Shown: positions 34,459 through 60,906 of the stretch, in pieces | Numbering within the stretch: the first letter of the stretch is position 1 | Layout: the number at the start of each line of letters is the position of its first letter | From: a virus | Length of the DNA stretch: 64,000 bases | Strand: one strand, 5' to 3' | Virus record (IMG/VR): IMGVR_UViG_3300032116_000033 | Location: 1 to 64,000 of that record | Notes under the pieces: model-generated | Told to the model about the DNA's origin: nothing | What the model saw: only the letters and a program-made list of their open reading frames with translations | Database searches by the model: none | Position numbers and translations under genes: made by a program

Positions 34459-34843
34459 ACTTTCGACCAACGAGGACGATCGTCAGGATCTTTGGGTGCG
34501 ATACCTAGAAAACCCTGACTCTGATTTATACAGTAATATCGAAGACATAAGCTTCAGAAACTCTATAAGAGACAGGATCGCCGACGACATAGTGAACCTC
34601 TACACCTCAACGCTTAAGGTCGGCTTTGTTCAGAATATACTCAGTAATTTCACCGACCTAGAGCGCTCAATCATAGTTCTCATCCTTTTAGGTCTATCCA
34701 ACGAGCAGATATCAAGGTATAAGATGATAGGGTTGCTGCGTCTAAATCAGACGCTGCACAACATCTCTTTGCACCCAGTGTGGGAGACCTTGCGTGTCGA
34801 AGAAAAAGCTAAGCTCGGAGCAGAAGCACGGGCTGACCGGTGA
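34409..34843 (+). CDS. Sigma-factor-like helix-turn-helix protein (144 aa)
   Basis: The segment DDRQDLWVRYLENPDSD resembles the start of ECF-sigma region 2 (D..DLxQE), and FTDLERSIIVLILLGLSNEQISRYKMIG resembles a sigma region 4 helix-turn-helix. Length (~144 aa) suits a compact phage sigma such as T4 gp55. It may direct RNA polymerase to GTATAAT sites found throughout the window. Alternatively any small HTH regulator; the match is weak and by eye. Overlaps both neighbours. Confidence 0.5.
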   Translation: MRNKDPKIMMIKEKIDRLSTNEDDRQDLWVRYLENPDSDLYSNIEDISFRNSIRDRIADDIVNLYTSTLKVGFVQNILSNFTDLERSIIVLILLGLSNEQISRYKMIGLLRLNQTLHNISLHPVWETLRVEEKAKLGAEARADR

Positions 34844-35405
34844 ACAGATCGCAGAGATCGAGCGTTACCTTCGTCAGCCGACTGCGTCAGGCGCGATAGA
34901 CAAACAAGAAGCATCACCGATATACGAGCTGTTCCTGATCGGCTACAGCACCGAGGAACTTGCCGCTCGATTTCCGCAGTACTCCAAGTCGCGCATACTG
35001 TACACGGCTGCCGCCGGCGGATGGGTGAAGGACAAGGAAAGGCTGGCGAGCTCGATATACGACCGCATCAGGGCCAGGATAATCAGGTCCACCGTAGAGC
35101 AGGTCGAGTTCCTGACCGACATGATAACCGTTTCGTCGGTCGAGAACGCGGACGAGATAAGGAAGTTCCTTGACGATCCCAAGAACAACCCGCTGCCGAA
35201 CATGCGCATAAAGAACTTCAAAGAGTACCAGCAGGTCATCGACACCTTGGCCAAGGTCACCGACTCGGTCCGCTCGCTCACCAACCCGAACGCGCAGCAG
35301 GAGGCGAGGGTGGTAAAGACTAAGTCGACGAAGAAGCTTCTGCCAAAGTCAGAAGAGGCCATGCTCCTTGAGCAGCTCGTGCAGGTAGACGACGATGGAC
35401 AGTAA
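34794..35405 (+). CDS. terS: Terminase small subunit-like protein (203 aa)
   Basis: GTG start; overlaps the sigma-like gene and the terminase large gene. Residues ~35-75 (YELFLIGYSTEELAARF then AAAGGWVKDKERLA) form a helix-turn-helix of the type found in phage small terminase subunits, followed by a helical oligomerisation region (IIRSTVEQVEFLTDM). Direct position before terL supports this. It would recognise phage DNA and load the large subunit. Confidence 0.75.
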   Translation: MSKKKLSSEQKHGLTGEQIAEIERYLRQPTASGAIDKQEASPIYELFLIGYSTEELAARFPQYSKSRILYTAAAGGWVKDKERLASSIYDRIRARIIRSTVEQVEFLTDMITVSSVENADEIRKFLDDPKNNPLPNMRIKNFKEYQQVIDTLAKVTDSVRSLTNPNAQQEARVVKTKSTKKLLPKSEEAMLLEQLVQVDDDGQ

Positions 35406-37650
35406 GAACAGGACATGCACCGTAGAAGGCTGCAGCAAACCGTTGAAGTCCAGAGGCTACTGCACCGGGCACTATAAGTCTATAATCGACCGACCAAAGA
35501 TCAAGCAGAAGAAGATCGAGGAGACCAAGGCTGCGCGCCAGGAGGTGATAAACCGCAAGATCTCAGAGAACGCGTCCAAGTTTACGCCAGAGCAGCTGGA
35601 GCGTATACTGCTAACGCCGTGCCGCACGGAGAAAGACCTCAAGAACTTTATCCGGTACTTCTTCAACCTACACCTGCCAGACTGCAAGGTCTCCAGGTAT
35701 GCAGACACCACTCCTTTTCATGCAGTTTGGGACGTGTACGACATATGCACGAACAACAACAATCCGCAAAATATCCAAGAATTACTGTATGTTGCAGGAA
35801 GGGGCAGCGGTAAGTGCGTTTCGCAAGATACTGTAATCATTACCAATAGTGGTACCAAATATGTACAAAACGTTAAGGTTGGCGATTTAGTTTGGACCGG
35901 CTGGTCCTGGAAACCCGTGGTCGAAACTTTTGACGAAGGCATTAAAGATGGCGTAACCATTACTACCAAACATCTTACCAAAGATGGCGCATGGTCTTTG
36001 ACTGGTTCCTTAAAGCATCGTGTTCAAGCCCTTGACCCCGAGACCGGCAAGATCGACTGGGTCTACATGAAAAATCTTATTCCGGGCCAGTTGATCTATA
36101 GGTCCTTAGAGTCACTAGGTGCCTTAGTAGACACGTCTTCTAACGATTACGAACTAGGATGGCTTGTTGGCTGCATAACCGGAGATGGTTCTGTTAGTCG
36201 CTTTGATAATGCCATATCTTTTGCCGCAAAAGATAAAGATCAATTAGCAATATATATAGATACTATAGTCAAACATTTTGGCGTAGAACCAAAAGTGAAA
36301 TATGACAAAAGATCGCCAAATCTCAGTATAGCTGGTATCTGTAGCAAGGCTTTAAGAGAATACTGCGACTCCATTATCGAGGGCGAACTCTGCTATTTCA
36401 AAAAGCTGAAGACATTGAACCATAGTCCAAGTTTTCTGGCTGGTTTTATATCTGGAATGATGGAGACCGATGGCTCCAAAGACTCGATAACGTTAGCCAA
36501 TCCAGAGCTCATAAAACAAATAGCTCAGATTTTGAATTTATTCGGTGTTCATGCCGTCATCAACAAAAAACGACGCAAGCCTTCTACAACTAAGTTTGTT
36601 AAAGACCACGTAGTGGAGTATCACTGCGTCGATTATAAAACCGCTCTACCAGAATATTTGATGCCATTGTTCTCTAAGCGCGAGGCCTTCAAGATCTACA
36701 GCGCTAAGATGAACGAGCAGTTTCGCTATCCGTCTAAATTGTTGAAACCCTTTGCATCTTTTATAAAAGACAAGTATGAGATCGCGAATGGATACTGGCG
36801 TCTCGAGGCGGGAAAAAAGACCCACTCCGATATAAAGTATTCTAAAGATCTTTGGGGATCTGGCGAGAAGGCTAAGGAGCTTTATGTCTACGGTTACAAG
36901 ATCGATTATTTCATAGATCTAGCGAAACGCCTAGAGGAATATGATTGGGCCGACTACCTTTCCTTCGTCAGGAGGGGGTGTTACGAGACCGTAGATTCAG
37001 TTGCCTTTGGCAAACATTACTTCTACGATCTTGAAGTAGACGTCGATCACGCGTACTGGTCGAACGGCTTCATCAGCCACAACACCCTCGGCATGGCCAT
37101 AGCTGAGCTTCTAGTGCTGATGCACGATCAGCGCGATGTGGTGCACGTGGGCGCGATCCTTTCTCAGGCAAAACGATGCTACGAGTATCAGCAGAAATTC
37201 CTTCTTTCAGACCGAATAAAGCCGATAGTGAACCCACCGAAGGTCAGCGAAGAGAACAAGATCCTAGAGAAGATGACGATGGAGAAGTCAGTGTTCAACA
37301 TCAAGAGTGAGAAAGTCACACTTGAAGTGCTCCCGTGCACGCTGCGAGCGTGCCTGGTTTCCTCCGCTACGTCAACCGATGTGCATGGTACAATAAGATC
37401 ATTGGCAGATTTCAAGCCAGGCGATTTTATCAAAGACACCACCGGCTTCGTCGAGGTCCTCGGCAACGAGCTAGAAGACGCCGAGTGCATAAGGATAGAG
37501 CTAGAAGATGGAAGAGTCATCGAAGGAACCCTCGACCACAAAGTCTGGACCCAGCGCGGATGGATCGAGCTTCAGCACCTCACCGACGCCGACGAGATCT
37601 CATCCTTGGAAAGCACCTCAACGCGAGCGCATGCAGAAGTTAAAGCGTAA
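35395..37650 (+). CDS. terL: Terminase large subunit, N-terminal half, with cis intein and N-terminal half of split intein (751 aa)
   Basis: Extein residues 1-140 begin with a zinc-finger-like CTVEGCSKPLKSRGYC and end at the Walker A loop VAGRGSGK. An intein (residues 141-563) interrupts it before the Thr. Extein resumes at TLGMAIAELLV (564-652), ending LPCTLRA, and residue 653 (Cys) starts a second, split intein that runs to the stop. The missing part of terminase (Walker B, nuclease) lies in a separate gene at 40163. Without both splicing events the ATPase is broken. Overlaps terS by 11 nt. Confidence 0.92.
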   Translation: MDSKNRTCTVEGCSKPLKSRGYCTGHYKSIIDRPKIKQKKIEETKAARQEVINRKISENASKFTPEQLERILLTPCRTEKDLKNFIRYFFNLHLPDCKVSRYADTTPFHAVWDVYDICTNNNNPQNIQELLYVAGRGSGKCVSQDTVIITNSGTKYVQNVKVGDLVWTGWSWKPVVETFDEGIKDGVTITTKHLTKDGAWSLTGSLKHRVQALDPETGKIDWVYMKNLIPGQLIYRSLESLGALVDTSSNDYELGWLVGCITGDGSVSRFDNAISFAAKDKDQLAIYIDTIVKHFGVEPKVKYDKRSPNLSIAGICSKALREYCDSIIEGELCYFKKLKTLNHSPSFLAGFISGMMETDGSKDSITLANPELIKQIAQILNLFGVHAVINKKRRKPSTTKFVKDHVVEYHCVDYKTALPEYLMPLFSKREAFKIYSAKMNEQFRYPSKLLKPFASFIKDKYEIANGYWRLEAGKKTHSDIKYSKDLWGSGEKAKELYVYGYKIDYFIDLAKRLEEYDWADYLSFVRRGCYETVDSVAFGKHYFYDLEVDVDHAYWSNGFISHNTLGMAIAELLVLMHDQRDVVHVGAILSQAKRCYEYQQKFLLSDRIKPIVNPPKVSEENKILEKMTMEKSVFNIKSEKVTLEVLPCTLRACLVSSATSTDVHGTIRSLADFKPGDFIKDTTGFVEVLGNELEDAECIRIELEDGRVIEGTLDHKVWTQRGWIELQHLTDADEISSLESTSTRAHAEVKA
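35815..37083 (+). other. Intein 1 in terminase Walker A, LAGLIDADG type (423 aa)
   Basis: Starts at Cys141 (CVSQDTVIITNSG, block A), has block B GSLKHRV, block F/G FYDLEVDVDHAYWSNG and ends GFISHN before Thr+1. Two LAGLIDADG motifs stand inside: LGWLVGCITGDGS and LAGFISGMMETDGS, so it carries its own homing endonuclease. It splits GRGSGK from T of the P-loop, a site where imperfect loss is lethal. Codon use is AT-richer than the extein, suggesting later arrival. Confidence 0.92.
37351..37650 (+). other. N-terminal half of a split intein (99 aa)
   Basis: Begins Cys653 (CLVSSATSTDV), continues with FKPGDFIKDTTGFVEVLGNE and block B GTLDHKVWTQRGW, and then stops. There is no C-terminal intein block in this gene. 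The complementary C-half (HN-Cys) opens the gene at 40163. The length of ~99 residues is typical of split intein N-fragments. Confidence 0.9.
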
Positions 37651-38428
37651 AGCCGACTACTGTGAATCCTGCCAGAAGCCTCTCTACAAGAATGTCTACA
37701 CGACGTGCAAGGAATGCCGCCTAGATAAAGGCTGCACCAAGTGTGGTTCCTCTATCTTTCGCAGGGGCATGTGTAGGTCCCATTACGATAAAGATAGATT
37801 TGCAACTCGACCTAGATGCTCCGAATATGACTGCAAAGAAAATGCAAAGCACAACGGGCTTTGTTCTGTGCACTACAACGCCAACAAACTAAAACAGGCC
37901 CCAGAGTGCTCAATTTCTGGGTGCACAAAGAAGGTTGAGAAAAAAGGCTTATGTGGCACGCATTATCAAGCGTGGCGAATTAGGCAACCTAAAAAGAAAT
38001 GCTCCCATGCTTCATGCGACAACAATGCCTTCAAGCATAAACTTTGTTTTTCACACTGGAAGATATTCGATCCAGAAACGGCTTTCGTGCGCGGCATAAG
38101 GGTGAGGATAACCAACTCGATCAACAGGCGCTACAAGAAGAACGACAAGGCCGAGAAGCTGTTGGGGCTCAACATAGAGGGAGTTAGAAGACACCTGGAG
38201 TCCTTGTTCCAGCCGGGGATGTCGTGGGACAACTTTGGTAGCTGGCACATCGACCACATATGTCCTTGTTCTCAGGCTCAGAACGAAGAAGAGCTCATAA
38301 AGCTGCAGCACTACACCAACCTTAGCCCGATGTGGAAAGACGAGAACTTCGCAAAGCGTGACACTGCTACGGAGCAAGCAATAGCATCGTGCAGTAGGCT
38401 TCTGGGAAGGGGGTGGATTGGTCCATGA
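37631..38428 (+). CDS. HNH endonuclease inside the fractured terminase (265 aa)
   Basis: Start ATG 37631 overlaps the end of the N-intein by 20 nt. The N-terminal half carries five Cys/His clusters, three of which repeat the pattern Cx4CxnGLCxxHY (CSEYDCKENAKHNGLC, CSISGCTKKVEKKGLC, CSHASCDNNAFKHKLC). The C-terminal half has FQPGMSWDNFGSWHIDHICPC and LQHYTNLSPMW, an HNH core closest to that at 47828. Zinc-finger half and nuclease half differ in base composition. Probable homing endonuclease mobilising the fracture. Confidence 0.88.
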   Translation: MQKLKRKADYCESCQKPLYKNVYTTCKECRLDKGCTKCGSSIFRRGMCRSHYDKDRFATRPRCSEYDCKENAKHNGLCSVHYNANKLKQAPECSISGCTKKVEKKGLCGTHYQAWRIRQPKKKCSHASCDNNAFKHKLCFSHWKIFDPETAFVRGIRVRITNSINRRYKKNDKAEKLLGLNIEGVRRHLESLFQPGMSWDNFGSWHIDHICPCSQAQNEEELIKLQHYTNLSPMWKDENFAKRDTATEQAIASCSRLLGRGWIGP

Positions 38429-38481
38429 GCTGCTTTGTAAAAAAAATGCACCGTAATCAAGGCTAATTGATAAATATCGGG

Positions 38482-38487
38482 TATAAT
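38482..38487 (+). promoter_or_regulatory. -10-like GTATAAT before the EDxHD-like nuclease gene
   Basis: GGGTATAATCCC lies 25 nt upstream of the chosen TTG start, within the gap behind the HNH gene. It could let the nuclease be transcribed independently of terminase. Confidence 0.5.
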
Positions 38488-38511
38488 CCCTATGGCACTA
38501 AGGGGATTATA

Positions 38512-40170
38512 TTGTCTAACGTCAGGACATCACCAGACAAGATACGGCAGCTTCTGCTGGAGAAGCACGGCGGCCTAGTGTCTATAGACGTCTCAACCTT
38601 CTGCGGCATGAACAAGAAAGCCAAGTTCATCGACGTAGACCACGGAGAGTGGTGGGCGACGCCTACGAAGGTGGTCACATGCGGCCAAAAGCACCCCAAT
38701 AGAAGAAAGATATCGCTTGCGGACATAATCGCCGCACTCGATACAAACCATCAAGGTCTAGTTTTTATAGACTCAAGCTCGTACTCTTCCTCCAACAAGA
38801 AAGCCAAGTTCATCGACGTAGACCACGGAGAGTGGTGGGCTCCGGTGTACAAGGTTGCTTTCTACGGTCAGTCTCATCCTGGAAGAAAGTCTAAGAAGCT
38901 GTCGGACAGCCGTGCGTCGACCCACACCACAGACGACTTCAGGGCAAAGATGAGTCAGAGGATAAAGGAAAAATACCACGACATAGCGAGCACGAACCTC
39001 CAGCGGTACGGCGTGTCCACTCCGCTGCTCCTGCCAGAGACGATAGACAAGAACAGGTCCCGCTTCCTTAGCCCTGAGGCCTTGAAGAAGAAAGAAGAGA
39101 CCAGAGCCGAAAGAAGATTAAGACTAAACGAGAGAAAGAGATCTAAAAGGACAAAGGCGGATCCAGCGGATAGGCTACGAAAACTTCAAGAGATCGGCGT
39201 AGCTAAGAGCTTAGACGGAAGATCCATCAAAGATATATGGAAGCTCAACTTCGCAGACAAGATAAGCTACTCGTTCGTGTGCAAGATCTATGCCAAGCAC
39301 CTACCAGCTACGGAGAGCGATTTTATCAGCCTAGTCGAAGAGCACTTTACCATGAGCGACATAGAAACGCTAATGAGCTCAAATCCTATGTTATCAAGGT
39401 TCGATAAGTTCCCGGCAAAAGGATGCAACATAAGACCTGACTTCAAGGTCTCCGATCGCGTCTACGTCAACGTCGACGGTCTATACTGGCACTCGGACAA
39501 AACATTACACAAGAAATACCACCTGAAGGCAAGGCTAAAAGCAGAAGAGTTTAACTTAAGGCTCCTGCAGTTCAGGGCAGACGAGGTGATCTACAAGCGG
39601 TCGATCGTCGACTCTATGATAGCGGTAAAGGCTGGCGCGGTGAAAGATAAACTCCATGCCAGGAAGCTTGATATAAGACAAGTGACCGCACCGGAGGCGA
39701 AGACCTTCCTCAAGGCCAACCATCTCATGGGGTTCGCGTCCGCTTCCGTGTATCTGGCCCTCAAGGACGTAGATCAGATAAAAGTCCTGCTCTCCTTAAG
39801 GTTCGAGGGCAGTCAAGTAAAAATAGTAAGGTTCGCTTCTGCGCTGAGCACCGTGGTCGTTGGCGGTTACTCCAAGCTGCTCAAGTATGCTATAAAGACG
39901 TTCGATATAGATAAGATCTACACGTTCGTCGACCTGCGGTACGGCGACGTCGCCTCGCTCAAGGACATGGGCTTCGTGCACGTCGGCACCACGCTGGGAT
40001 GGAAGTGGACCGACTACGACAAGACCTACAATCGTCTGTTCTGCAAGGCTAACATGGACGAGAGAAAATTGACACAGAAAGAGTACGCCAAAGAGCTTGG
40101 CTTGGTCAAGATCTACGACGCGGGTCAGGCGAAGATGGTCTTAAGCGTTGACAGAGGTTCAGATGGCTAA
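38512..40170 (+). CDS. Vsr/EDxHD-like homing endonuclease inside the fractured terminase (552 aa)
   Basis: TTG start at 38512 has AAGGGG a few bases upstream; an earlier TTG at 38467 is behind the promoter-like site. The N-terminus has two near-identical ~60-residue repeats (KAKFIDVDHGEWWA, GQxHPxRK). The C-terminal half has a PD-(D/E)XK/Vsr-like core around VYVNVDGLYWHS, KYHLKARLKAEEFNLRLLQFR, and a long C-domain (KANHLMGFA, FVDLRYGDVASL, GWKWTDYDKTYNRL). The same C-half occurs in the gene at 53015. EDxHD/Vsr-type nucleases are known partners of split inteins in fractured phage genes. Confidence 0.85.
   Translation: MSNVRTSPDKIRQLLLEKHGGLVSIDVSTFCGMNKKAKFIDVDHGEWWATPTKVVTCGQKHPNRRKISLADIIAALDTNHQGLVFIDSSSYSSSNKKAKFIDVDHGEWWAPVYKVAFYGQSHPGRKSKKLSDSRASTHTTDDFRAKMSQRIKEKYHDIASTNLQRYGVSTPLLLPETIDKNRSRFLSPEALKKKEETRAERRLRLNERKRSKRTKADPADRLRKLQEIGVAKSLDGRSIKDIWKLNFADKISYSFVCKIYAKHLPATESDFISLVEEHFTMSDIETLMSSNPMLSRFDKFPAKGCNIRPDFKVSDRVYVNVDGLYWHSDKTLHKKYHLKARLKAEEFNLRLLQFRADEVIYKRSIVDSMIAVKAGAVKDKLHARKLDIRQVTAPEAKTFLKANHLMGFASASVYLALKDVDQIKVLLSLRFEGSQVKIVRFASALSTVVVGGYSKLLKYAIKTFDIDKIYTFVDLRYGDVASLKDMGFVHVGTTLGWKWTDYDKTYNRLFCKANMDERKLTQKEYAKELGLVKIYDAGQAKMVLSVDRGSDG
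38611..38840 (+). repeat. 47-bp perfect direct repeat within the nuclease gene
   Basis: Bases 38611-38657 and 38794-38840 are identical over 47 nt, encoding two copies of NKKAKFIDVDHGEWWA. Perfect identity indicates a recent duplication of a DNA-binding-like module or gene conversion between copies. Confidence 0.9.
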
Positions 40171-40294
40171 GGTAACGAAAATCGAGCGCACGGGCATAAA
40201 GCAAATAGCGAAATTGGAGGTTCGTTCAAGCGACGATCCGACCAATCCGATGTCAAATTCGTTTGTTACAGCTGACGGCACCATCAACCACAAC
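40163..40294 (+). other. C-terminal half of the split intein (44 aa)
   Basis: MAKVTKIERTGIKQIAKLEV is block F type and MSNSFVTADGTINHN is block G, ending Asn44 before Cys+1 (Cys45). Penultimate His and final Asn are intact, so class 1 trans-splicing with the N-half at 37351-37650 is chemically plausible. Size (~44 aa) is usual for split intein C-fragments. Confidence 0.9.
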
Positions 40295-42826
40295 TGCAAT
40301 GGACCACACGTGCCGCTGGTCGTGGTGGACGAGATTGATACAGTATCAGGCGAGGGGCTTAGAGCCTACAAAGAAATCTCCGGTATGCTCGACTCCAAGC
40401 GCGGCCGTAAGCCGCTGCGCGTGGGCATATCGACCAGAAAGTCGCGATACGGTCTCATGAACCAAGCCATCGAGAACGCCGAGAAGCAGGGCAGACATGT
40501 TCGTCGCTGGACCGCATTTGAGTTCACCGAGCGATGCCCAGACTCACGATCTGGAACGCAGCGCCAAGAATACTACATCGATCAGCAGTCGTTCGACGTG
40601 AGATCTCCGTCAGAGTTCGAGAAGCTCGGCGAGCAGAGGAAGAAAGAGTACGAGAGATACGAGATGTACATAGGCTGCGGGAAATGCCCACTCGCTCCTA
40701 TATGCCTCGGCGACGCCAAGAATCAAGTCTCAGAATCGCCGATGCTCAAGTCTATAGACGAGCTCGCGCAGAAGGTCTTGTCAGAGGGTCCTGACTGGGC
40801 GATGTCCCAGCTGATGAATCTAAAGCCGTCGGTCGAGGGGATCATCTACAAAGAGTTCGACGAGCGCATGCACGTCAAGACCTGGAACCAGATGTGGTTG
40901 TCGCTGACCGGAAAAGAGTTTCCTGGCGAGTGCAACCACGATATATTCGTCAAGAAATGCTTCAGTGACGACACTGAGGTTTTGACGAACAACGGCTTTA
41001 AGCTTTTTAAAGATCTTACTGAGTATGACACTCTAGCCACCCTAGACAACGGTGGTGTGTTAAACTACCAGAAACCGATAGAGCACATCTCGTATCACTA
41101 TAAGGGAAAGATGGTAAACCTTTACAATGAGATAGGCGGAGGCAAGCACCATCTCGACCTTCTGGTTACTCCCAACCACGATGTCGAGTACCTTCACGGT
41201 AGAAACTTCAGAAAGAAGCAAGAGATAAAGCTTTTGAAGCAGCGAGCAGACTCTCTTGACGAGCTGAACGATTTTTACATACCGGCTACCTGGCTTTCCG
41301 GCTCTACAGCAAACAACATGGACATAAAATCTCCTATAAGCTTCATGACCGGCGATCAGTTTATGGCCTTCATGGGGCTTTGGCTGAGCGAAGGCTCTAT
41401 GAGTTCGACAAGAGCAAACGACGAGTGGGGGCACAACAAGGTAGAGGTTTCTCAGTCTAAGAGCAGAGACGCCTCTGACAAGGTTGAGCGGCTTATGGCA
41501 TCGATAGCTTGGCCCAACAAGCTTCACAGAGAGTCTGATGCTCGGGATCAGGTTGACTATACGACAAACTGGTCCGTATACAACAAAGAACTATATAATT
41601 ACTTAAAGCCTTTAAAGTTTGCCGTCAACAAGTTGATATCTAGGAACATACTTGAACAAGCTTCCCGCAGGCAGCTATCGATCCTTTTGGAGTGGCTATG
41701 CTTCGGGGACGGCTCGTACATGTTCGACGGATCAAGGCAACAGCCTTATTATTCAACAGGCTCTGAGCAGCTTGCCAACGATGTTCAAGAGCTATGCTTT
41801 AGATTGGGATATAAGAGTTCTCTTTCAATGCAGGGTAATCAAGGCAAAACGCACAAGAACACAGGGACTGAGTACCTAAGACGTTTTAGAGTTAATTTTC
41901 ACTTTAAGACAAACAACAAGCCAGCAGATCGTTCGTACTACATCAACAACGGAACCAACAAGAGCGAATATTCTAATAAAACACAAGGAAACATAGGTGA
42001 AGTAGACTACGATGGAATGGTCTATTGTGTAACGATGCCCTCGTCTAGGTTATTTGTTCGCCGCAACGGAGTAATATCGCTGAGCGGCAACTGTCACAAC
42101 ATGGGTCTTCCAGCGTACGCCGGCATCGACTGGGGATGGTCAAACCCGCACACGCTCGTGGTATTTTTCGTGGACGCAAAAGAGAACATATACGTCGTAA
42201 GATGCGACGGCATGACGTATATATCAAGGCCCACGTGGATGCACCACATCAAGAACAAGTGGCATCAGCCATACCGTATCCAACTCTACTTTCCTGACCA
42301 AGCGGATCCTGGTGACGCAGTAGAGATGAGGAAGCTTGGCCTTCCGACTTCGACAAACACAGACAAGGGCAACATCAACACCGGCATACAGATCATAAAG
42401 AAGTGGCTTAAGATTCCAGGCACTGCCGAGTCTAAGCTTTTCATTGCTCAGGAGACATGTCAGGCTCTGATAAGGGAGTTCCAGCTCTACCACTACAAAA
42501 CCGATGCCGCTGGCCAGATATCAGACACTCCAGACAGCGAGCACGATCACTGGCTGGATGCTTTACGATACCCGCTGACGAACCTTTTCGGCAAGAACCA
42601 GATCGTGCTTTCATCTGCCGGTTTGGACGTCGATATGGCAAAACTGGTTGATAACAATGGAAATTTCTTCAAGGCGCCCACTCCAGAAGAGTACGCGAAA
42701 CTCAACAACCTGCCGTTTAATCCAGAGGTTAATGCCGATAAGCTTGGTAAAATAGGAAGGCTGTCTGAGATCGATGACGAGGAAGACGATAAGTCTGTAG
42801 ACGGTGGATTTCTTTGGACGTTTTGA
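40163..42826 (+). CDS. terL: Terminase large subunit, C-terminal half, with split-intein C-half and a third intein (887 aa)
   Basis: ATG 40163 stands 5-8 nt after AGAGG; it overlaps the nuclease stop by 8 nt. Residues 1-44 are a split-intein C-fragment; Cys45 starts extein CNGPHVPLVVVDEIDTV, with Walker B and catalytic Glu. Residues 45-265 complete the ATPase; intein 3 spans 266-643; residues 644-887 are the RNase H-fold nuclease (AGIDWGWSNPHTLVV, PDQADPGDA, DSEHDHWLDALRY). Joined with the first half, the mature enzyme would be ~694 aa. Confidence 0.92.
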   Translation: MAKVTKIERTGIKQIAKLEVRSSDDPTNPMSNSFVTADGTINHNCNGPHVPLVVVDEIDTVSGEGLRAYKEISGMLDSKRGRKPLRVGISTRKSRYGLMNQAIENAEKQGRHVRRWTAFEFTERCPDSRSGTQRQEYYIDQQSFDVRSPSEFEKLGEQRKKEYERYEMYIGCGKCPLAPICLGDAKNQVSESPMLKSIDELAQKVLSEGPDWAMSQLMNLKPSVEGIIYKEFDERMHVKTWNQMWLSLTGKEFPGECNHDIFVKKCFSDDTEVLTNNGFKLFKDLTEYDTLATLDNGGVLNYQKPIEHISYHYKGKMVNLYNEIGGGKHHLDLLVTPNHDVEYLHGRNFRKKQEIKLLKQRADSLDELNDFYIPATWLSGSTANNMDIKSPISFMTGDQFMAFMGLWLSEGSMSSTRANDEWGHNKVEVSQSKSRDASDKVERLMASIAWPNKLHRESDARDQVDYTTNWSVYNKELYNYLKPLKFAVNKLISRNILEQASRRQLSILLEWLCFGDGSYMFDGSRQQPYYSTGSEQLANDVQELCFRLGYKSSLSMQGNQGKTHKNTGTEYLRRFRVNFHFKTNNKPADRSYYINNGTNKSEYSNKTQGNIGEVDYDGMVYCVTMPSSRLFVRRNGVISLSGNCHNMGLPAYAGIDWGWSNPHTLVVFFVDAKENIYVVRCDGMTYISRPTWMHHIKNKWHQPYRIQLYFPDQADPGDAVEMRKLGLPTSTNTDKGNINTGIQIIKKWLKIPGTAESKLFIAQETCQALIREFQLYHYKTDAAGQISDTPDSEHDHWLDALRYPLTNLFGKNQIVLSSAGLDVDMAKLVDNNGNFFKAPTPEEYAKLNNLPFNPEVNADKLGKIGRLSEIDDEEDDKSVDGGFLWTF
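40958..42091 (+). other. Intein 3 in terminase before the nuclease domain, LAGLIDADG type (378 aa)
   Basis: Cys266 starts block A (CFSDDTEVLTNNGFKLFKDL), block B is TPNHDVEYLH, blocks F/G are YCVTMPSSRLFVRRNG and ISLSGN, before Cys+1. Two LAGLIDADG-like motifs: FMAFMGLWLSEGSM and LLEWLCFGDGS. The penultimate residue is Gly rather than His, a known but less common variant. The extein beyond begins CHNMGLPAYAGIDWG, the first nuclease catalytic motif. Confidence 0.9.
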
Positions 42827-42839
42827 TAAGTATAATAAA

Positions 42840-42845
42840 TAAAAG
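42840..42845 (+). promoter_or_regulatory. -10-like GTATAAT before portal gene
   Basis: AAGTATAATAAAT between the terminase stop and portal start, with no -35 match. One of the GTATAAT set; closest in form to the T4 late-promoter TATAAATA type. Confidence 0.5.
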
Positions 42846-42865
42846 CGCATATTATTGGAGACTTT

Positions 42866-44785
42866 ATGTCTTGGATTGAAGATATCAAGAAAGCGGTTAC
42901 CGACTCGATTCGCAAGGACATAGAGGACTTAACAAAAGTCGACGCAGACGACGCGCCAGACAAATCCCAAAGTCAGCCGGGCACCGGCGAGCTCGTAGGC
43001 GCCAAGGCCATACTGACCGACCCGTTCTACGACCACGCGGTCCACAACTACTTTCTCTCAAAGAGCAGGGTCTCTCGCATATCTAACAGAACCCTGCGCG
43101 AGATATCGATGCGCGACTGGCTCGTGAACACGATCCTTCAGATCCGCTGCGATACGGTCCTGAGGTTCTCTCGCCCCCAGCACAAGCGCTTCGACATGGG
43201 ATACAAGTTCGTCAAGACAGACCACTCGGCCATGTCTCAGGAAGACATCGACAACATCCGCATGCTGGAAGACTTCGTCTACCACTGCGGTCGCATAGAC
43301 GGAACGCCTCGCGGCGAGGAGATGCTCTTCGGCGAGTTCGTCAAGCTCATCGTGTGGGACGCGCTCTGCTTCGGCCACATCGCGTGCGAGAAGGTCCTGA
43401 CCAGGAAAGGCGGCCTTCACAGGTTCCGTCCCCTGCCCGCGGAGACGGTCTACAAGGTAAACCCCAACATCAACCGAGCCACGGTAGAGGGCCAGGCCAA
43501 GGTCGCCGTAGACCTGTATCACAAGAAAAGATCCGACAACGACTCGTCTAACCGCGGCCACGTAAACACGCCCGAGATCGAGTACTTCAAGTACGTCCAG
43601 CAGTCGGTCGACAACCGAGTCCTCAACGTCTTCGGCGACGAGGACATGATCTTCAAGCTGTTCAATCCCAAGAACTTTGCAGACTCGAACGGTTACGCCA
43701 TATCCATGGTCGAGCAGTCGGTGATAATGATCACGAACCACCTTAACGTGGAATCATACAATGCGAACTACTTCACCCATGGCTACGCTGCACGAGGAAT
43801 ACTACACCTTAAGGGCACGGTTACTCAGAACACTCTTGCATCTTTCCGTCGTCAGTTCTACAACACTATATCAGGATCCAACAATGCTTGGCGGACGCCT
43901 ATAGTCGCCGGCCTAGACGACGTGCAGTGGATACCGATGTCTGGTTCGGCCAAGGAGATGGAGTACATCAACTTCAACTCCCACATCATGCGAAGCATAT
44001 GCGCGCAGTTCCAGATCGACCCCATCGAGGTCGGCCTCGACTACCTTACCACGGCGAACGGTCGCGCGGCCTCTCAGGCCAAAGAGTCAGGCCAGTTCAA
44101 GATCACGTACTCTCGCGAGCGTGGTCTGCTGCCGATACTGTTCTTCATCGAGGACCTGATAAACCAAGATGTCGTTCCTGCGCTGGACAAAACGCTGGCA
44201 GAGCGCTATAAGTTCAAGTTCGTAGGCTACACGGACGATACACCTCAGACAGATATATCGCTCAGACAAGCGCAGCAGACAGTTTTTGCTTCTATGAACG
44301 ATCTTCTGAAAAATGAAGACAAAAAACCCCTTAGTCATCCAATTGCAGATCTTCCTCTTAATCAGTCGTTCTGGACTCTTGTAGACAAGATGATGACCAA
44401 GGGAGAGCAACGTGAGTTCTTTCTGGGTGATACTGGAGCAACAAATAGAAATGAATTAAAATATCTACCAGGCGATCCTATGTTCCTTCAATTTCAAAAT
44501 CTGCTTATGACAAAGCAGGCCCATAAAGAAGCAAAAGATCAACAGCAGCAACAGATGGAAATGCAGCAGCAACAGCTTCAGTCTCAGCAAGATGTCGTCG
44601 ATGGTCAGGCTGAAAGACAAAAACAAGCAGATGCTCAGGCAGCGGTTCGGCAAAGCAAGCAAGAGTCTCCTGTACAGCAGCTTCAGGAATCCGCTAAGCA
44701 GTACGGCGCAACTCGAGCTGGAAGCGTAGAAGGCCAGGTCATGCGCAACCCGATAAACGCCGCCGCAGAAGCCGAAAAAGAGTGA
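42866..44785 (+). CDS. Portal protein (639 aa)
   Basis: Large protein directly after terL with portal-like traits: a helical stretch ending with FGEFVKLIVWDALCFGHIACEKV, the segment GGLHRFRPLPAETVYKVNP, DEDMIFKLFNPKNF, and the helix near RAASQAKESGQFKITYSRERG. The C-terminal ~100 residues are a Gln-rich tail (KDQQQQQMEMQQQQLQSQQ). It would form the dodecameric ring for DNA passage. Codons of the region 44280-44650 are AT-richer than the rest, a trace of mosaic exchange. Confidence 0.88.
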   Translation: MSWIEDIKKAVTDSIRKDIEDLTKVDADDAPDKSQSQPGTGELVGAKAILTDPFYDHAVHNYFLSKSRVSRISNRTLREISMRDWLVNTILQIRCDTVLRFSRPQHKRFDMGYKFVKTDHSAMSQEDIDNIRMLEDFVYHCGRIDGTPRGEEMLFGEFVKLIVWDALCFGHIACEKVLTRKGGLHRFRPLPAETVYKVNPNINRATVEGQAKVAVDLYHKKRSDNDSSNRGHVNTPEIEYFKYVQQSVDNRVLNVFGDEDMIFKLFNPKNFADSNGYAISMVEQSVIMITNHLNVESYNANYFTHGYAARGILHLKGTVTQNTLASFRRQFYNTISGSNNAWRTPIVAGLDDVQWIPMSGSAKEMEYINFNSHIMRSICAQFQIDPIEVGLDYLTTANGRAASQAKESGQFKITYSRERGLLPILFFIEDLINQDVVPALDKTLAERYKFKFVGYTDDTPQTDISLRQAQQTVFASMNDLLKNEDKKPLSHPIADLPLNQSFWTLVDKMMTKGEQREFFLGDTGATNRNELKYLPGDPMFLQFQNLLMTKQAHKEAKDQQQQQMEMQQQQLQSQQDVVDGQAERQKQADAQAAVRQSKQESPVQQLQESAKQYGATRAGSVEGQVMRNPINAAAEAEKE

Positions 44786-46688: not shown

Positions 46689-47339
46689 GTGGGCGATCTA
46701 GAATTTAATCAGCAATGCACATGCGGACAGCCTGTATCTCATAAAAGATATAGGCTGTGTAGCAATTGCTATAAAGATAAAAGAAAACAAGATTGGAAAA
46801 TAAACGAACAAATTCGTAGAGCAAATGATCCAGATAGAGTTCGCAAAATATCGGAAGCAAAATCAAATAAATATAAAGAACTTAAGGTCCTTAGACCTAA
46901 AGTGCCTAAAAAATGTGCATGCGGAAACGTTGCTCTAAAAGGATCTAGGCGTGTATTGTGTGAAACCTGCTCGAAAGAAAATAGAAGAACTAAGAAAATA
47001 AAATATCAAAACAATAGAAAGAAAACTCACACACCCTCAAAGATTCGTGAAAATATTAAAAGTAGACTCAAAAGAGCATTAAAAAGCAATAAGTCTATGT
47101 CTATTGTTGAATACTTAGGTTGCTCTATGGATTTTTATATAAAATACTTAGAATCTAAATTCTTACCCGGCATGACTTGGGAAAACTATGGTATAAATGG
47201 ATGGCACATAGATCATATAATTCCATTAAGTACAGATTATAGTAATTTAGATTTGCATAACTATAAGAATACTCAGCCTATTTGGGAAAACGACCACTTA
47301 TTAAAAACCTCACAAGAAAACAAAAGAGAGGGAACTTAA
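46689..47339 (+). CDS. HNH homing endonuclease (216 aa), strongly AT-rich
   Basis: GTG start; N-terminal Cys clusters (CTCGQPVSHKRYRLC; CACGNVALKGSRRVLC), basic middle, HNH core FLPGMTWENYGINGWHIDHIIPLST. AT content is the most extreme of the HNH genes along with 61947, so probably the newest. Its first codons (GTGGGCGATCTAGAA, MGDLE) closely copy the start of the next gene (GTGGGTGATCTGGAC, MGDLD). Confidence 0.92.
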   Translation: MGDLEFNQQCTCGQPVSHKRYRLCSNCYKDKRKQDWKINEQIRRANDPDRVRKISEAKSNKYKELKVLRPKVPKKCACGNVALKGSRRVLCETCSKENRRTKKIKYQNNRKKTHTPSKIRENIKSRLKRALKSNKSMSIVEYLGCSMDFYIKYLESKFLPGMTWENYGINGWHIDHIIPLSTDYSNLDLHNYKNTQPIWENDHLLKTSQENKREGT

Positions 47340-47827: not shown

Positions 47828-48604
47828 ATGAGGAAAGCTTGGAACTACGTAGAGATAGAAGCTGGCACTAGATTTGGTCAACTGGTTGTCGTAGAAGAAA
47901 CAAGTACCGATCGTCAAAATAGACGCTTTAAATGCTTATGCGACTGCGGAAAAGAACACGAAACAAGCTATGCCTGCCTGCGATACGGCAAGTCTAAATC
48001 TTGCGGCTGCTTAAAAATAAGAGAAACAATAGAACGACACAACTCAACCCGCGGCTCTACTGTAGTCGGTCTTGCTAACGGTTCATGGGTGGTTTTCTCT
48101 TATTCTGGTCGCACGTACAATTGTCGCTGCGAAGTTTGCGGCAGCGAGAAAAGCTTCAACGAGTCATCCTTTAAGTGCGGCGGCATATCGTCGTGTTGTA
48201 GACCGGTCTCTAGGAATCATGTCTATTACAAAAGATCGCTGCGGACGTGCATCGGCATGGCTATAGGCAAGCAATATAAGAAAACTCAAAAATCCGCGGA
48301 TATGCTTGGTATGCCTATAGACGAAGTGCTTAAGCACATAGAGTCGCTGTGGCAGCCTGGCATGAGTTGGAAAAATAAAGGCAAACGTGGACCAGATGGC
48401 TGGGACATCGATCATATATGTCCTTGCTCTCAAGCGCAGAACGAAGAAGAGCTAATAAAGTTACAGCATTACACAAACTTGAGGCCGATGTGGGCGATCG
48501 ATAACAGGACTAAGAATGATTTTAAAACCCCAGAGGGAGAAGACATATGCCAAAAACTTCTGGGGCGAGAGTGGATAGATAAACCTAAGTGGTACAATCT
48601 ATAA
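47828..48604 (+). CDS. HNH homing endonuclease with CxCDCG zinc module (258 aa)
   Basis: ATG 47828 has GAGG 5 nt upstream; GTG at 47822 is inside that site. The N-terminal zinc module (RRFKCLCDCGKEHE ... GKSKSCGC) is also the N-terminus of the EDxHD-like nuclease at 53015. The C-terminal HNH (WQPGMSWKNKG, GWDIDHICPCSQAQNEEELI, LQHYTNLRPMW) is close to that of the HNH in the fractured terminase. Free-standing, lying just before the prohead protease. Confidence 0.9.
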   Translation: MRKAWNYVEIEAGTRFGQLVVVEETSTDRQNRRFKCLCDCGKEHETSYACLRYGKSKSCGCLKIRETIERHNSTRGSTVVGLANGSWVVFSYSGRTYNCRCEVCGSEKSFNESSFKCGGISSCCRPVSRNHVYYKRSLRTCIGMAIGKQYKKTQKSADMLGMPIDEVLKHIESLWQPGMSWKNKGKRGPDGWDIDHICPCSQAQNEEELIKLQHYTNLRPMWAIDNRTKNDFKTPEGEDICQKLLGREWIDKPKWYNL

Positions 48605-49524: not shown

Positions 49525-50169
49525 ATGAAGACGTGCAGTAAGTGTAAAGAGTCTAAGAGTTTAGATAGTTTTGCAGGAGACAACAAAAGATCCGACGGAA
49601 AGCGCCCTTCCTGCAAGCAGTGCAATAGGGCTTTCTATAAGCAAAACTACAGCAAGGGCGACATACCGACGCCGATGACCGAAGAAGAGAAGCGCAAGAT
49701 AAGATCAGACTACTACAAAGACAACAAAGATATGCTGCTGGCCAAACATGCCAAGTGGAGATCAGAGAACAAAGATACAATAAAAGGGCTGAATCGCGCC
49801 TGGTACGAGAAGAACGGCAAGCAGTACTATAAAGACCGCTATGAAAATGATCTAAACTTCAGGATGTTGAAGGTGATAAGGTCTCGCTTAAACTCCGCGA
49901 TAAAAAACTGCGCCAAGACCGGATCGGCGGTGTCCTCGCTTGGCTGCTCGATAGAGGAGCTCAAGTCGCACCTGGCCGAGATGTTCCAGCCTGGTATGTC
50001 GTGGGACAACTGGGGCAAAGGCGATGGAAAATGGAACATAGACCACATCATTCCATTGAGCTCGTTCGACCTGTCGAATCCTGACGAATTCAACAAAGCC
50101 TGCAATTATAAAAACTTACAACCGCTGTGGGAGTTTGACAATCTTTCCAAGAAAGACAGACTAATTTAA
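49525..50169 (+). CDS. HNH homing endonuclease (214 aa)
   Basis: N-terminal zinc motif CSKCKESKSLDSF ... CKQC, a lysine-rich middle, and HNH core FQPGMSWDNWGKGDGKWNIDHIIPLSSFDLSNP then YKNLQPLW. Belongs to the same subfamily as 9168 and 61947. The codon use resembles the phage's own more than those two do, so it may be an older insertion. It separates the protease from the head genes. Confidence 0.9.
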   Translation: MKTCSKCKESKSLDSFAGDNKRSDGKRPSCKQCNRAFYKQNYSKGDIPTPMTEEEKRKIRSDYYKDNKDMLLAKHAKWRSENKDTIKGLNRAWYEKNGKQYYKDRYENDLNFRMLKVIRSRLNSAIKNCAKTGSAVSSLGCSIEELKSHLAEMFQPGMSWDNWGKGDGKWNIDHIIPLSSFDLSNPDEFNKACNYKNLQPLWEFDNLSKKDRLI

Positions 50170-53014: not shown

Positions 53015-54556
53015 ATGTCTAGACTTACAGCAAAAGCAAACGATAAATACAATAGATGGACTTTCGTAGAAAAGAAACTTGGAGACGACGGTCGCCAGGT
53101 TGGATGGATCTGTAGGTGTGACTGTGGAACAGAGCGATTGATAAAGACGCCCAACACTATTCTTCACGGTAAGTCTCAGTCTTGTGGCTGCTACAAATCA
53201 GAGTTCTTTTCTGAAAACAATCCAATGTACAGAGAAGATATTGTTGAAAAAGTAAGACAATCTATGAAGTCTGATCCTAACAGACCAGAGATCTTAAAAA
53301 GGGCAGTCGAAGCCTCCAAGTCTCAACAGACCAAAAACAAAAGAAAGTCCACTAATCAGCTCAAATACGGCGGAGCAGCTCCTGCATGCAGCCCTGATAT
53401 CAAGGATAAGATCAAGTCTACCAATATTGACCGCTACGGAACTTCTGCTCCAAGTCAAAATAAAGAAGTGTTCGCAAAGATGTCTATGACAAACTTAGAA
53501 CGCTACGGTGTAGAAAATGCTATGCTCAACAAAGACGTAGCAATGAAGGTTGCAAGTTCTATATCTCAAACTCTAAGAGAAAAGGGAATTCAATCTTTTC
53601 CAGATGGCAGGATAGTCGTCGATTCCTGTAAAGAAAAAGGAGTAAGGCCTACTTCGCTTCGCAATGTCGCTAGAGAGCTTGGATGGGACGCTGCGCAAGA
53701 CTGGTTGGATAATTATCATAAACATCGTTCTTCTTTGGAGCTTCTGTCAATAAACATGTTTAAGAACAGCGGGTTAGATGCAGAGGCTTACAATCTTGGC
53801 GTCCCAGAGATGCTGGAAAAAGGTATTAGATATAGGCCAGATATCATATTGAAGCACGACAATAAAACTATATATGTAGATGTAGACGGACTATATTCAC
53901 ACTCGATGCGCGACAAACAATACCACATTAAAAAGGCATATACATATAAAGAAAACAACGTGCGTCTACTTCAGTTTCGCCAGGACGAAATAAAGAATAC
54001 TCCTGACATAGTCTGTTCTATGGTCGCCAATGTATTGGGTTTAAGCAAAAAGATAGGAGCTAGAAAACTTGAAGTTAAAAGCATCTCGGTCGACGATGCC
54101 GCTGCCTTTATGCAAAGCAACCATCTTATGGGCTCAGCAAGATGCTCGACTGCTATTGCTTTGGTCCTTAACTCAGAACCAATGATGGTTATAACGTATC
54201 GTCGTCACAAGGATGGCATAGACTTGGTCAGAGTCGCAACAAAGATTGGTTTTCAGATTCAGGGCGGATTGTCTCGTCTTCTGAAGCGTATAGAAACGTT
54301 ATCTAAACCACGATTCATTCAGTCGTTTGTAGATCTGCGCTACGCTGACGGTTCCAGCTTAAAGGCTGTAGGTTTTAATTTGATGTCTGTGACCTTAGGA
54401 TGGCAGTGGACAGACAATCATAATACGTTTAATAGACTGCGTTGTCGCGCAAATATGGACGACAGGCTGCTGTCAGAGAAACAACACGCAGAAGAACTTG
54501 GATGGACAAGGCTATATGACGCAGGTCAGGCAAAGTATGTTATGTATTGTGTTTAA
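53015..54556 (+). CDS. Vsr/EDxHD-like homing endonuclease with CxCDCG zinc module (513 aa)
   Basis: The N-terminus (GWICRCDCGTERLI ... GKSQSCGC) matches the zinc module of the HNH enzyme at 47828. It is followed by repeated NxxRYGxxxPxxNxxV-type segments (IDRYGTSAPSQN, LERYGVENAMLN), then a Vsr-like core IYVDVDGLYSHS, KQYHIKKAYTY, RLLQFRQDE, and a C-domain paralogous to that at 38512 (QSNHLMGSA, FVDLRYADGSSL, GWQWTDNHNTFNRL). Free-standing behind the capsid gene. Differs from its paralogue in the N-terminal modules. Confidence 0.85.
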   Translation: MSRLTAKANDKYNRWTFVEKKLGDDGRQVGWICRCDCGTERLIKTPNTILHGKSQSCGCYKSEFFSENNPMYREDIVEKVRQSMKSDPNRPEILKRAVEASKSQQTKNKRKSTNQLKYGGAAPACSPDIKDKIKSTNIDRYGTSAPSQNKEVFAKMSMTNLERYGVENAMLNKDVAMKVASSISQTLREKGIQSFPDGRIVVDSCKEKGVRPTSLRNVARELGWDAAQDWLDNYHKHRSSLELLSINMFKNSGLDAEAYNLGVPEMLEKGIRYRPDIILKHDNKTIYVDVDGLYSHSMRDKQYHIKKAYTYKENNVRLLQFRQDEIKNTPDIVCSMVANVLGLSKKIGARKLEVKSISVDDAAAFMQSNHLMGSARCSTAIALVLNSEPMMVITYRRHKDGIDLVRVATKIGFQIQGGLSRLLKRIETLSKPRFIQSFVDLRYADGSSLKAVGFNLMSVTLGWQWTDNHNTFNRLRCRANMDDRLLSEKQHAEELGWTRLYDAGQAKYVMYCV

Positions 54557-60554: not shown

Positions 60555-60555
60555 T

Positions 60556-60906
60556 ATGGAAAAGCTTATCAAGTCAGACAACGGCCAGTGGGCGCTGGTA
60601 AAAGCGGCACCAAAGGGCGTAAACAAAGAAAAATGGGATCGCTGCGTAGAAGACGTCAAGGCAGAAGGTAAAGTAGAGAGCCCGCATGCTGTCTGCACCG
60701 CTGCTATGGCAAAGGAAGAAGACCACGACTCGAAGATGCTCTTCTCACAGCTCGAGGCGATCATGCACCATATCAAAGAAATAAGAGAAGCGATGTCTCC
60801 TGAGGAAGATGCTCCGGACTGGGTTGATGCCAAGATCACAGAAGCGGCCAAGCAGTTGTCAGACGTCGCGCACTACATCCAGGGCGAGAAAGCCGCGAAG
60901 AAGTAA
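60556..60906 (+). CDS. Small protein with N-terminal NGQW motif and PHAVC motif (116 aa)
   Basis: ATG 60556 two bases after the upstream stop. Starts MEKLIKSDNGQWALVKAAP, the NGQWxLxK signature. Then KWDRCVEDVKAEGKVESPHAVCTAAM, a Cys-containing motif widespread in small phage proteins, and a helical C-half. The NGQW module is at the N-end here and at the C-end in other proteins, so it seems a portable docking element. Confidence 0.7.
   Translation: MEKLIKSDNGQWALVKAAPKGVNKEKWDRCVEDVKAEGKVESPHAVCTAAMAKEEDHDSKMLFSQLEAIMHHIKEIREAMSPEEDAPDWVDAKITEAAKQLSDVAHYIQGEKAAKK

What the first reader, a model, noticed from the sequence alone, without database searches (positions are those of the whole stretch)
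35395..42826. Terminase large subunit fractured by a split intein with two homing endonuclease genes between the halves
Seen: gene 1 ends in a Cys-started intein N-fragment with blocks A and B and then a stop; gene 2 starts with an intein C-fragment ending HN-Cys. The exteins join as LPCTLRA|CNGPHVPLVVVDE, just before Walker B. Between them lie an HNH gene (37631) and a Vsr/EDxHD-like gene (38512). Known: 'fractured genes' with split inteins and Vsr-like nucleases have been described from environmental phage data. Inference: DNA packaging needs protein trans-splicing. I am not aware of this in terminase.
Basis: partly seen in the sequence, partly recalled or inferred. Interest (0 to 1): 0.95.

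Follow-up and report, generated by a model that had tools for sequence, protein, structure and literature searches.

The report
Phage packaging gene split by intein
A phage's DNA-packaging motor gene is cut in two by a split protein-splicing element with DNA-cutting genes in the gap, and relatives show the same site empty, unbroken, or filled with quite different genes, a natural record of how a mobile element can break an essential gene.

Summary
terL of this 134,893-base phage record is two genes (35395-37650; 40163-42826). Gene 1 ends in a canonical IntN; gene 2 begins with a 44-residue IntC ending HN|C. Each half also carries a contiguous LAGLIDADG intein, so three splicing events would yield a 694-aa, 79.5-kDa TerL. 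An HNH-type gene and an EDxHD/Vsr-like homing-endonuclease gene lie between; no second terL was found. The kind is known: split TerL inteins (AceL-TerL, GOS-TerL) and TerL inteins with homing endonucleases are in print. New here is an allelic series at one codon boundary: of 86 distinct entries, 70 are uninterrupted, 2 carry a contiguous LAGLIDADG intein, 14 are split (12 without near copies). Split alleles hold five kinds of endonuclease-type gene or, in three, no recognised endonuclease (polymerase-beta-like nucleotidyltransferase plus unknown protein, twice; trypsin-like protease, once). One allele pair shows a gradient of synonymous divergence (0.89-0.22-0.03 | 0.03-0.40-0.88) centred on the intein, as homing with co-conversion predicts. 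Trans-splicing is inferred, not measured. New variant of a known kind.

The parts
35395..37650 (+). terL gene 1: N-extein 1 - INT1 - N-extein 2 - IntN of split intein, 751 aa
35395..35814 (+). N-extein 1 (140 aa) up to Walker A GRGSGK
   Evidence: contiguous with N-extein 2 in relatives without INT1
35815..37083 (+). INT1, contiguous intein with LAGLIDADG_3 domain, between Lys and Thr of Walker A (423 aa)
   Evidence: PF14528 1.4e-9; PF14890 9.5e-6, below its cut-off; TIGR01443 3.4e-4, over its cut-off
37084..37350 (+). N-extein 2 (89 aa), ends LPCTLRA
37351..37647 (+). IntN of the split intein (99 aa), Cys1, block B TLDH
   Evidence: TIGR01445 7.7e-5, just under its cut-off; alignment of split alleles; stop in frame
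37631..38428 (+). free-standing HNH-type gene (HNH-A) with Cys/His finger repeats; starts inside the end of gene 1
   Evidence: phrog_5351 HNH endonuclease 2.1e-7, matched over the finger part of ORF 37508-38428; no Pfam match; the relative in L046 matches phrog_1035 endonuclease VII at 7.8e-5 over its nuclease part; HNH motif itself read by eye; start context
38512..40170 (+). free-standing EDxHD/Vsr-like homing-endonuclease gene (VSR1) with a GNAT-like C-terminal domain
   Evidence: phrog_3339 1e-38; profile match to 3r3p; fold; GNAT-like domain; start context
40163..42826 (+). terL gene 2: IntC - C-extein 1 - INT3 - C-extein 2
   Evidence: PHROG terminase large subunit 1.2e-20
40163..40294 (+). 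IntC of the split intein (44 aa from ATG 40163), ends INHN
40295..40957 (+). C-extein 1 (221 aa), begins CNGPHVPLVVVDEID (Walker B)
40958..42091 (+). INT3, contiguous intein with LAGLIDADG_3 domain (378 aa), before GIDWGW
   Evidence: PF14528 4.3e-6
42092..42823 (+). C-extein 2 (244 aa), RNase-H-like nuclease domain
   Evidence: Terminase_3C 4.3e-4, below its cut-off; PHROG terminase
42866..44785 (+). portal protein gene, next gene downstream
   Evidence: PF04860 4.3e-16

Best explanation
It is a fractured terL gene. Two polypeptides are translated from a co-directional cluster with overlapping genes (gene 1/HNH overlap 20 nt; nuclease gene/gene 2 overlap 8 nt). INT1 and INT3 splice in cis. 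The canonical split intein (IntN 99 aa, IntC 44 aa) associates and splices in trans, giving a 694-aa TerL. The split intein and the genes in its gap can move together as a homing unit: a free-standing nuclease is expected to cut the uninterrupted terL codon boundary of a co-infecting phage, and repair copies intein halves, cargo and flanking extein, including the Cys+1 that splicing needs. At this codon boundary the element exists in three forms: a contiguous LAGLIDADG intein; a split intein with one or two free-standing endonuclease-type genes; and a split intein whose gap holds other genes. Shown by sequence: anatomy, the three forms at one site, cargo variety, and a transfer-like gradient in one allele pair. 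Inferred: trans-splicing, cutting by HNH-A or VSR1, and the order contiguous, then split, then cargo swap.
For: Split-intein landmarks, in-frame stops and extein continuity. Site 2 is empty in 70, split in 14 and contiguous in 2 of 86 distinct entries; the contiguous ones (L122, L320) match LAGLIDADG_2 at 7.3e-31 and 5e-28. L122 is one 1818-aa ORF with inteins at the same three sites. Varied cargo. dS of L012 vs L013: N1 0.89, N2 0.22, IntN 0.03, nuclease 0.17, IntC 0.03, C1 0.40, C2 0.88 (identity windows). In an extein tree of 72 rows site 2 needs at least 8 state changes. +1 is Cys in 13 of 13 split rows (L057 among them is a cut copy of L049); in the window's own 21-row clade it is Cys in 10 of 10 split and 0 of 11 empty rows, which have Leu or Val. 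The nuclease domain resembles I-Bth0305I. No RNA intron match in 37300-40400 at E up to 1.
Against: No splicing or cutting was measured. +1 Cys against state gives only 3 independent pairs (sign test p 0.25). Of the pairs compared (13), only L012/L013 is close enough to show the gradient, and there the nuclease gene (dS 0.17) differs more than the intein halves (0.03). L046/L049 go the other way: exteins nearer than inteins. Tree conflict is partly supported: window+L010 held together on intein data is not rejected (p-AU 0.084), nor window+L014 on extein data (0.053); window+L046+L014 on extein data is, a group chosen after seeing the intein tree. The penultimate His is Ala in split L114 and Lys in split L162; contiguous L122 ends HAN and L320 ends LQ. 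Intein fragments vary more than exteins (pN/pS 0.05-0.47 in 7 comparisons with the window, up to 0.72 for L031/L114). L122's intein core is very divergent and its LAGLIDADG family is not that of INT1/INT3, so descent of the split forms from it is not shown (long branches).
Confidence: 0.87

Rival explanations
1. Genes-in-pieces without splicing: the two polypeptides assemble non-covalently into a working TerL and the intein fragments are inert tails.
For: A working phage ribonucleotide reductase broken by a homing endonuclease gene without splicing is in print (Friedrich 2007, seen only as cited in passages).
Against: Catalytic intein residues are kept in all 12 split alleles aligned (Cys1; block B TxxH in 11, SxxH in L114; terminal Asn; Cys+1), with pN/pS 0.05-0.47 in 7 comparisons with the window; inert tails should decay.
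Confidence: 0.06
2. The gap (37648-40162) is removed as an RNA intron, so that the intein is translated whole and splices in cis.
For: A phage terL spliced at RNA level exists (ICP1, PMC10448857 passages).
Against: No Rfam match in the gap at E up to 1 or in the window at gathering scores. Distance between the exteins at site 2 runs from 947 to 2944 bases with unrelated content, in two alleles with the nuclease gene on the other strand. The 11 IntC looked at begin at an ATG (7) or TTG (4).
Confidence: 0.03
3. terL here is a dead or decaying copy and another terminase does the work.
For: The record may be incomplete; its completeness is not given.
Against: No other terL piece in 134,893 bases, both strands; exteins strongly conserved; next to the portal gene.
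Confidence: 0.03

Closest known systems
Fractured genes with split inteins and Vsr-like nucleases (Dassa et al. 2009; definition recalled, paper not held)
   Same: Conserved phage enzyme gene cut in two at a split intein, free-standing endonuclease gene between, EDxHD/Vsr-like nuclease.
   Different: Host gene is terL; two endonuclease-type genes in one gap; two more contiguous inteins in the same protein; relatives show empty, contiguous and endonuclease-free states of the same site.
AceL-TerL and GOS-TerL naturally split inteins (PMC11766414, PMC13014065, passages)
   Same: Naturally split inteins in the terminase large subunit, shown to splice in trans.
   Different: Those are atypically split (S2 site, IntN 25 and 37 aa); here IntN is 99 aa and IntC 44 aa. 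Their insertion codon was not compared.
Campylobacter phage IBB_35 terL (PMC3322345 passages; record HM246721)
   Same: terL broken by intein-like pieces with endonuclease ORFs between; one insertion (GYA|C .. HN|CNIIVVDE) lies just before Walker B.
   Different: T4-like phage; short IntN-like piece; authors describe one intein and one intron. The intein pieces were read by eye here.
Lactobacillus phage CL2 terL (KR905067)
   Same: TerL ORF ends in an IntN, then an HNH gene, then an IntC plus C-extein that is not annotated (read by eye).
   Different: Different site (AHDH|CMDATRY); no second endonuclease gene in the gap.
TerL inteins of mycobacteriophages and cyanophage Mic1 (PMC5050341, PMC7156551, passages)
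   Same: TerL is a frequent intein host; mycobacteriophage site a lies between Lys and Thr of the P-loop, as INT1 here; two inteins in Mic1 TerL.
   Different: Described as inteins within one gene; the words 'split intein' and 'fractured' do not occur in PMC5050341.

Membership tests
Naturally split intein (canonical split) | Cys1 at the start of IntN and block B TxxH | tested here: met
   CLVSS..GTLDH in the window; TxxH in 11 of 12 split alleles, SxxH in L114
Naturally split intein (canonical split) | IntC ends His-Asn followed by Cys/Ser/Thr +1 | tested here: met
   INHN|C in the window; penultimate His in 10 of 12 split alleles, Ala in L114, Lys in L162
Naturally split intein (canonical split) | Fragments on separate polypeptides with exteins contiguous in homologues | tested here: met
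   In-frame stop after IntN in all 14 split entries; 70 of 86 entries uninterrupted
Naturally split intein (canonical split) | Trans-splicing activity | not testable with these tools
   Needs co-expression
Fractured gene (Dassa-type; definition recalled) | Free-standing endonuclease gene between the halves | tested here: met
   VSR1; HNH-A with weaker support
AceL/GOS-type atypical split TerL intein | Short IntN (25-37 aa) split after the first helix | tested here: not met
   IntN 99 aa, IntC 44 aa; definition from passages
EDxHD homing endonuclease (I-Bth0305I) | Profile and fold match to the I-Bth0305I catalytic domain | tested here: met
   3r3p E 0.002 with a 38-sequence profile, 'Endonuclease I' 3cae 0.0015; Foldseek rank 2-3, prob 0.93 and 0.80, target TM 0.65 and 0.61, but E 0.16 and 0.28; rank 1 is 3hrl, a putative endonuclease-like protein; Pfam Vsr matches 2, Phage_endo_I 4 and DUF559 6 of 38 members, none matches the window's own domain
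EDxHD homing endonuclease (I-Bth0305I) | The named catalytic residues in place | tested here: inconclusive
   Invariant PD, DGLxxH, a further H and QF in 38 members, not mapped residue by residue to 3r3p
EDxHD homing endonuclease (I-Bth0305I) | Cuts the intein-free allele | not testable with these tools
   Needs a cleavage assay
Group I/II intron | Intron RNA in the gap | tested here: not met
   No Rfam match up to E 1 in 37300-40400

The most novel reading that the evidence does not exclude
A fracture point outlives its homing endonuclease and becomes a gene-docking site inside an essential gene: once the split intein makes the break harmless, endonuclease-type genes replace one another there (two HNH types, three EDxHD types, in either orientation). 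In three split alleles the gap now holds only genes that are not recognised endonucleases (a polymerase-beta-like nucleotidyltransferase with an unknown partner, kept in two alleles at 56% and 35% identity; a trypsin-like protease), so that an ordinary cargo gene is kept in the packaging operon by obligatory protein trans-splicing of the motor.
Probability: 0.4. Interest if true: 0.75.

Novelty: new variant of a known kind. Interest (0 to 1): 0.64.

Why it matters
How contiguous inteins become split inteins, and what the homing endonuclease does in it, has been argued from scattered loci (recalled). Here one codon boundary in one phage gene family shows the uninterrupted state, the contiguous LAGLIDADG state, the split state with several kinds of free-standing endonuclease-type gene, and the split state without a recognised one, with a homing-like gradient in one allele pair. 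That makes the steps testable with matched alleles. It would also make DNA packaging of this phage depend on three protein-splicing reactions, one of them between two polypeptides, and it offers a set of split inteins for protein engineering.

Tried and rejected
Considered and set aside: RNA intron in the gap; a second terL in the record (searches had looked at one strand only, so one search repeated it on both); L071-L077 as contiguous versions of the split intein (L072, looked at, has a Hint-like stretch in a 2722-aa ORF; the other six give the same match); a promoter or terminator in the gap (9 promoter-like and 10 terminator-like sites in 34500-43200, shuffles 8.0 and 9.0, so nothing above chance); a close solved relative of IntN (best E 0.059, gp41-1). 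A fold search with the whole nuclease was filled by the GNAT-like C-terminal domain, so the nuclease domain was folded alone. Relatives of the two L010 cargo proteins in phage records: none. Tests of tree conflict were mixed. INT3 of window and L005 is 91% identical in protein, but its fourfold sites differ as much (0.54) as those of C-extein 2 (0.53), so recent transfer of INT3 is not shown.

Rows dropped: counts use loci with both N-extein 2 and C-extein 1 found and with different DNA (86, the window's own allele included; 83, where either was enough). L057, counted apart, has the same gap as L049 base for base and is a cut copy; L008 differs from the window at 10 of 7432 bases; without these two, 12 split alleles remain. 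From 83 to the 72 tree rows, 11 were dropped for missing parts or as near-twins of the window (L008, L001, L006 among them); L057 stayed in. Retrieval kept the best 80 of 153, of 127 and of 203 relatives, so the counts are no estimate of frequency. The scan of bacterial genomes gave 3 loci, in metagenome-assembled Saprospiraceae, Cytophagales and Flavobacteriaceae, none split.
Full report
What is there. The window lies in a 134,893-base virus record. terL is in two pieces. Gene 1 (35395-37650) reads N-extein 1, INT1, N-extein 2, IntN. Gene 2 (40163-42826; mechanical ORF from 40148) reads IntC, C-extein 1, INT3, C-extein 2. INT1 and INT3 are contiguous inteins with LAGLIDADG_3 domains. The split intein has Cys1, block B GTLDH and a C-terminal HN before Cys+1. 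The two extein sides meet at LPCTLRA|CNGPHVPLVVVDE. The spliced product is 694 aa, 79.5 kDa; the precursors are 85.5 and 101.4 kDa. All three inteins sit at or near active-site motifs: inside Walker A, before Walker B, and before the GIDWGW stretch of the nuclease domain (motif names recalled).

The gap. An HNH-type gene (37631-38428) starts inside the last codons of gene 1. Its support is modest: phrog_5351 HNH endonuclease 2.1e-7 over the finger part, no Pfam match, a relative in L046 with phrog_1035 endonuclease VII at 7.8e-5, and an HNH motif read by eye. A second nuclease gene (38512-40170) overlaps gene 2 by 8 bases. Its PHROG is a homing endonuclease family (1e-38). A profile of 38 nuclease domains finds 'Endonuclease I' (3cae, E 0.0015) and 3r3p (E 0.002) among solved structures. 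3r3p is the catalytic domain of the homing endonuclease I-Bth0305I; the predicted domain (pLDDT 83.8) has it at Foldseek rank 2-3 (prob 0.93 and 0.80, weak E-values). I-Bth0305I is the example given for EDxHD homing endonucleases (PMC3943268 passages). The C-terminal domain (about 399-567) is GNAT-like, with phage Mu Mom among the matches (Z 12.9).

Relatives. Six scans of viral contigs and one of bacterial genomes gave, after removing duplicate DNA, 86 entries with both N-extein 2 and C-extein 1, the window's own included. Site 2 is uninterrupted in 70. In L122 (1818-aa ORF) and L320 (1039-aa ORF) it holds a contiguous intein with a LAGLIDADG_2 domain (7.3e-31 and 5e-28); L122 has inserts at all three sites. 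In 14 it is split, each with a stop after IntN, 12 without near copies. Cargo of these 12: HNH-A with VSR1 (window); VSR1 alone (L012, L013, L047); HNH-A alone (L046); HNH-A with a different EDxHD-type nuclease on the other strand (L014); that type of nuclease alone (L058); a third EDxHD-type (L162; phrog_3339 5.6e-48); a second HNH type (L114; phrog_1035 endonuclease VII 1.1e-20; 42% identical to the end part of HNH-A); a polymerase-beta-like nucleotidyltransferase plus an unknown protein (L010, L049; PF14791 3.3e-12 and 1.6e-8); and a trypsin-like protease (L031; PF13365 1.5e-6). 'No endonuclease' in the last three means none was recognised: the unknown protein has no Pfam or PHROG match, and the L010 copy no phage match.

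Mobility. Between L012 and L013, dS is 0.89 in N-extein 1, 0.22 in N-extein 2, 0.03 in IntN, 0.17 in the nuclease gene, 0.03 in IntC, 0.40 in C-extein 1 and 0.88 in C-extein 2. This is what a transfer of intein plus cargo with co-converted flanks would leave, although the nuclease gene has changed more than the intein halves. INT1 of the window and L070 is 94% identical in protein (dS 0.89, fourfold sites 0.41) while their exteins are 64-87% identical and saturated (fourfold 0.68-0.71): a sign of separate transfer. INT3 of the window and L005 is 91% identical against exteins 58-85%, but its synonymous sites do not stand out. L046 and L049 have near exteins and more distant inteins, as if one intein had been replaced or each gained its own. 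On an extein tree of 72 rows the site-2 state changes at least 8 times. In the window's 21-row clade all 10 split rows (one a cut copy) have Cys at +1, and all 11 empty ones Leu or Val. L046 and L049 read TLKA|C although the empty relatives L070, L015, L017 and L018 read TMRA|L, again as co-conversion predicts; but only 3 independent pairs exist (p 0.25). Over the whole tree 39 of 58 empty rows have Cys, either sites open to invasion or sites that lost the intein. Direct tests of tree conflict were mixed.

Reading. The simplest account is a fractured gene kept working by trans-splicing and spread by homing. Under it the contiguous alleles show the form with an internal endonuclease at the same codon boundary, most split alleles the form in which free-standing endonucleases have taken over, and L010, L049 and L031 a form in which they have been lost or replaced. 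The order of these steps is inferred.

Known or new. TerL is the most frequent intein host in mycobacteriophages and inteins of it splice there (PMC5050341, passages). Split TerL inteins AceL and GOS splice in trans. Campylobacter phage IBB_35 terL is in print with an intein, an intron and a homing endonuclease, and its record shows several intein-like pieces (read by eye). Lactobacillus phage CL2 has a fractured terL whose C-half is not annotated. So the kind is known. Searches of the open library for split inteins with terminase, TerL, fractured genes, metagenomes and EDxHD listed no paper that I recognised as describing one site with empty, contiguous, split and endonuclease-free alleles; listings were seen for all, passages of ten papers, no paper was read whole, and the founding paper on fractured genes was not held.

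Noticed in passing
window 35395-35550: The N-terminus of TerL carries a Cys/His finger like the repeats of the HNH gene in the gap (phrog_5351 HNH endonuclease matches TerL residues 4-53 at 2.6e-6). Eight more distant alleles (L030-L037; L034 starts at its contig end) align with N-extein 1 only from residue 51 or later. It may be a captured endonuclease DNA-binding module.
   Followed up: partly
window 53015-54556: A second EDxHD-type gene (35% identical) lies further downstream and aligns along the GNAT-like part too.
   Followed up: partly
window 9207-9428, 47043-47306, 48227-48577, 49864-50157, 62214-62516: Five further matches to the gap HNH protein in this window, and others in the rest of the record (L078, L079, L081): the phage is loaded with such genes.
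   Followed up: no
L220 (Campylobacter phage CPt10) 1690-5757: nrdA is cut by split-intein-like pieces (by eye) with two ORFs in between that have no Pfam match: a possible second case of a gap without a recognised endonuclease, in an isolate.
   Followed up: partly
L222 (Lactobacillus phage CL2) 506-2800: Fractured terL whose IntC and C-extein are not annotated; the C-half lies between the HNH gene and the portal gene and overlaps the portal start (by eye).
   Followed up: partly
L338 (Campylobacter phage IBB_35) 41760-47033: terL with a small contiguous intein at the ATPase site, a short IntN-like piece, an ORF that looks GIY-YIG-like, and an IntC-like piece ending INHN before CNIIVVDE, then more intein-like sequence with the MobE gene (by eye).
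   Followed up: partly
L231 and L232, 2584-3258: An IntC-like gene start (SNGVFLHN|S) upstream of an EDxHD-type gene in large phage contigs: possibly another fractured gene.
   Followed up: no
L072 1794-9962: An intein-like Hint stretch inside a 2722-aa ORF, ending VHN followed by Lys, not Cys/Ser/Thr (by eye).
   Followed up: no
L122 1795-7251 and L320 3282-6401: Contiguous site-2 inteins carry LAGLIDADG_2, whereas INT1 and INT3 of the window carry LAGLIDADG_3; L320 ends in Gln instead of Asn.
   Followed up: partly
window 60520-60906, 62521-63015; L010 7048-7926: A recurring N-terminal motif like LIKxxNGQWxLxK is shared by several phage ORFs and the unknown gap protein (by eye).
   Followed up: no
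window 15844-17547: ORF that looks like a GroEL-type chaperonin (by eye from its start; not tested).
   Followed up: no
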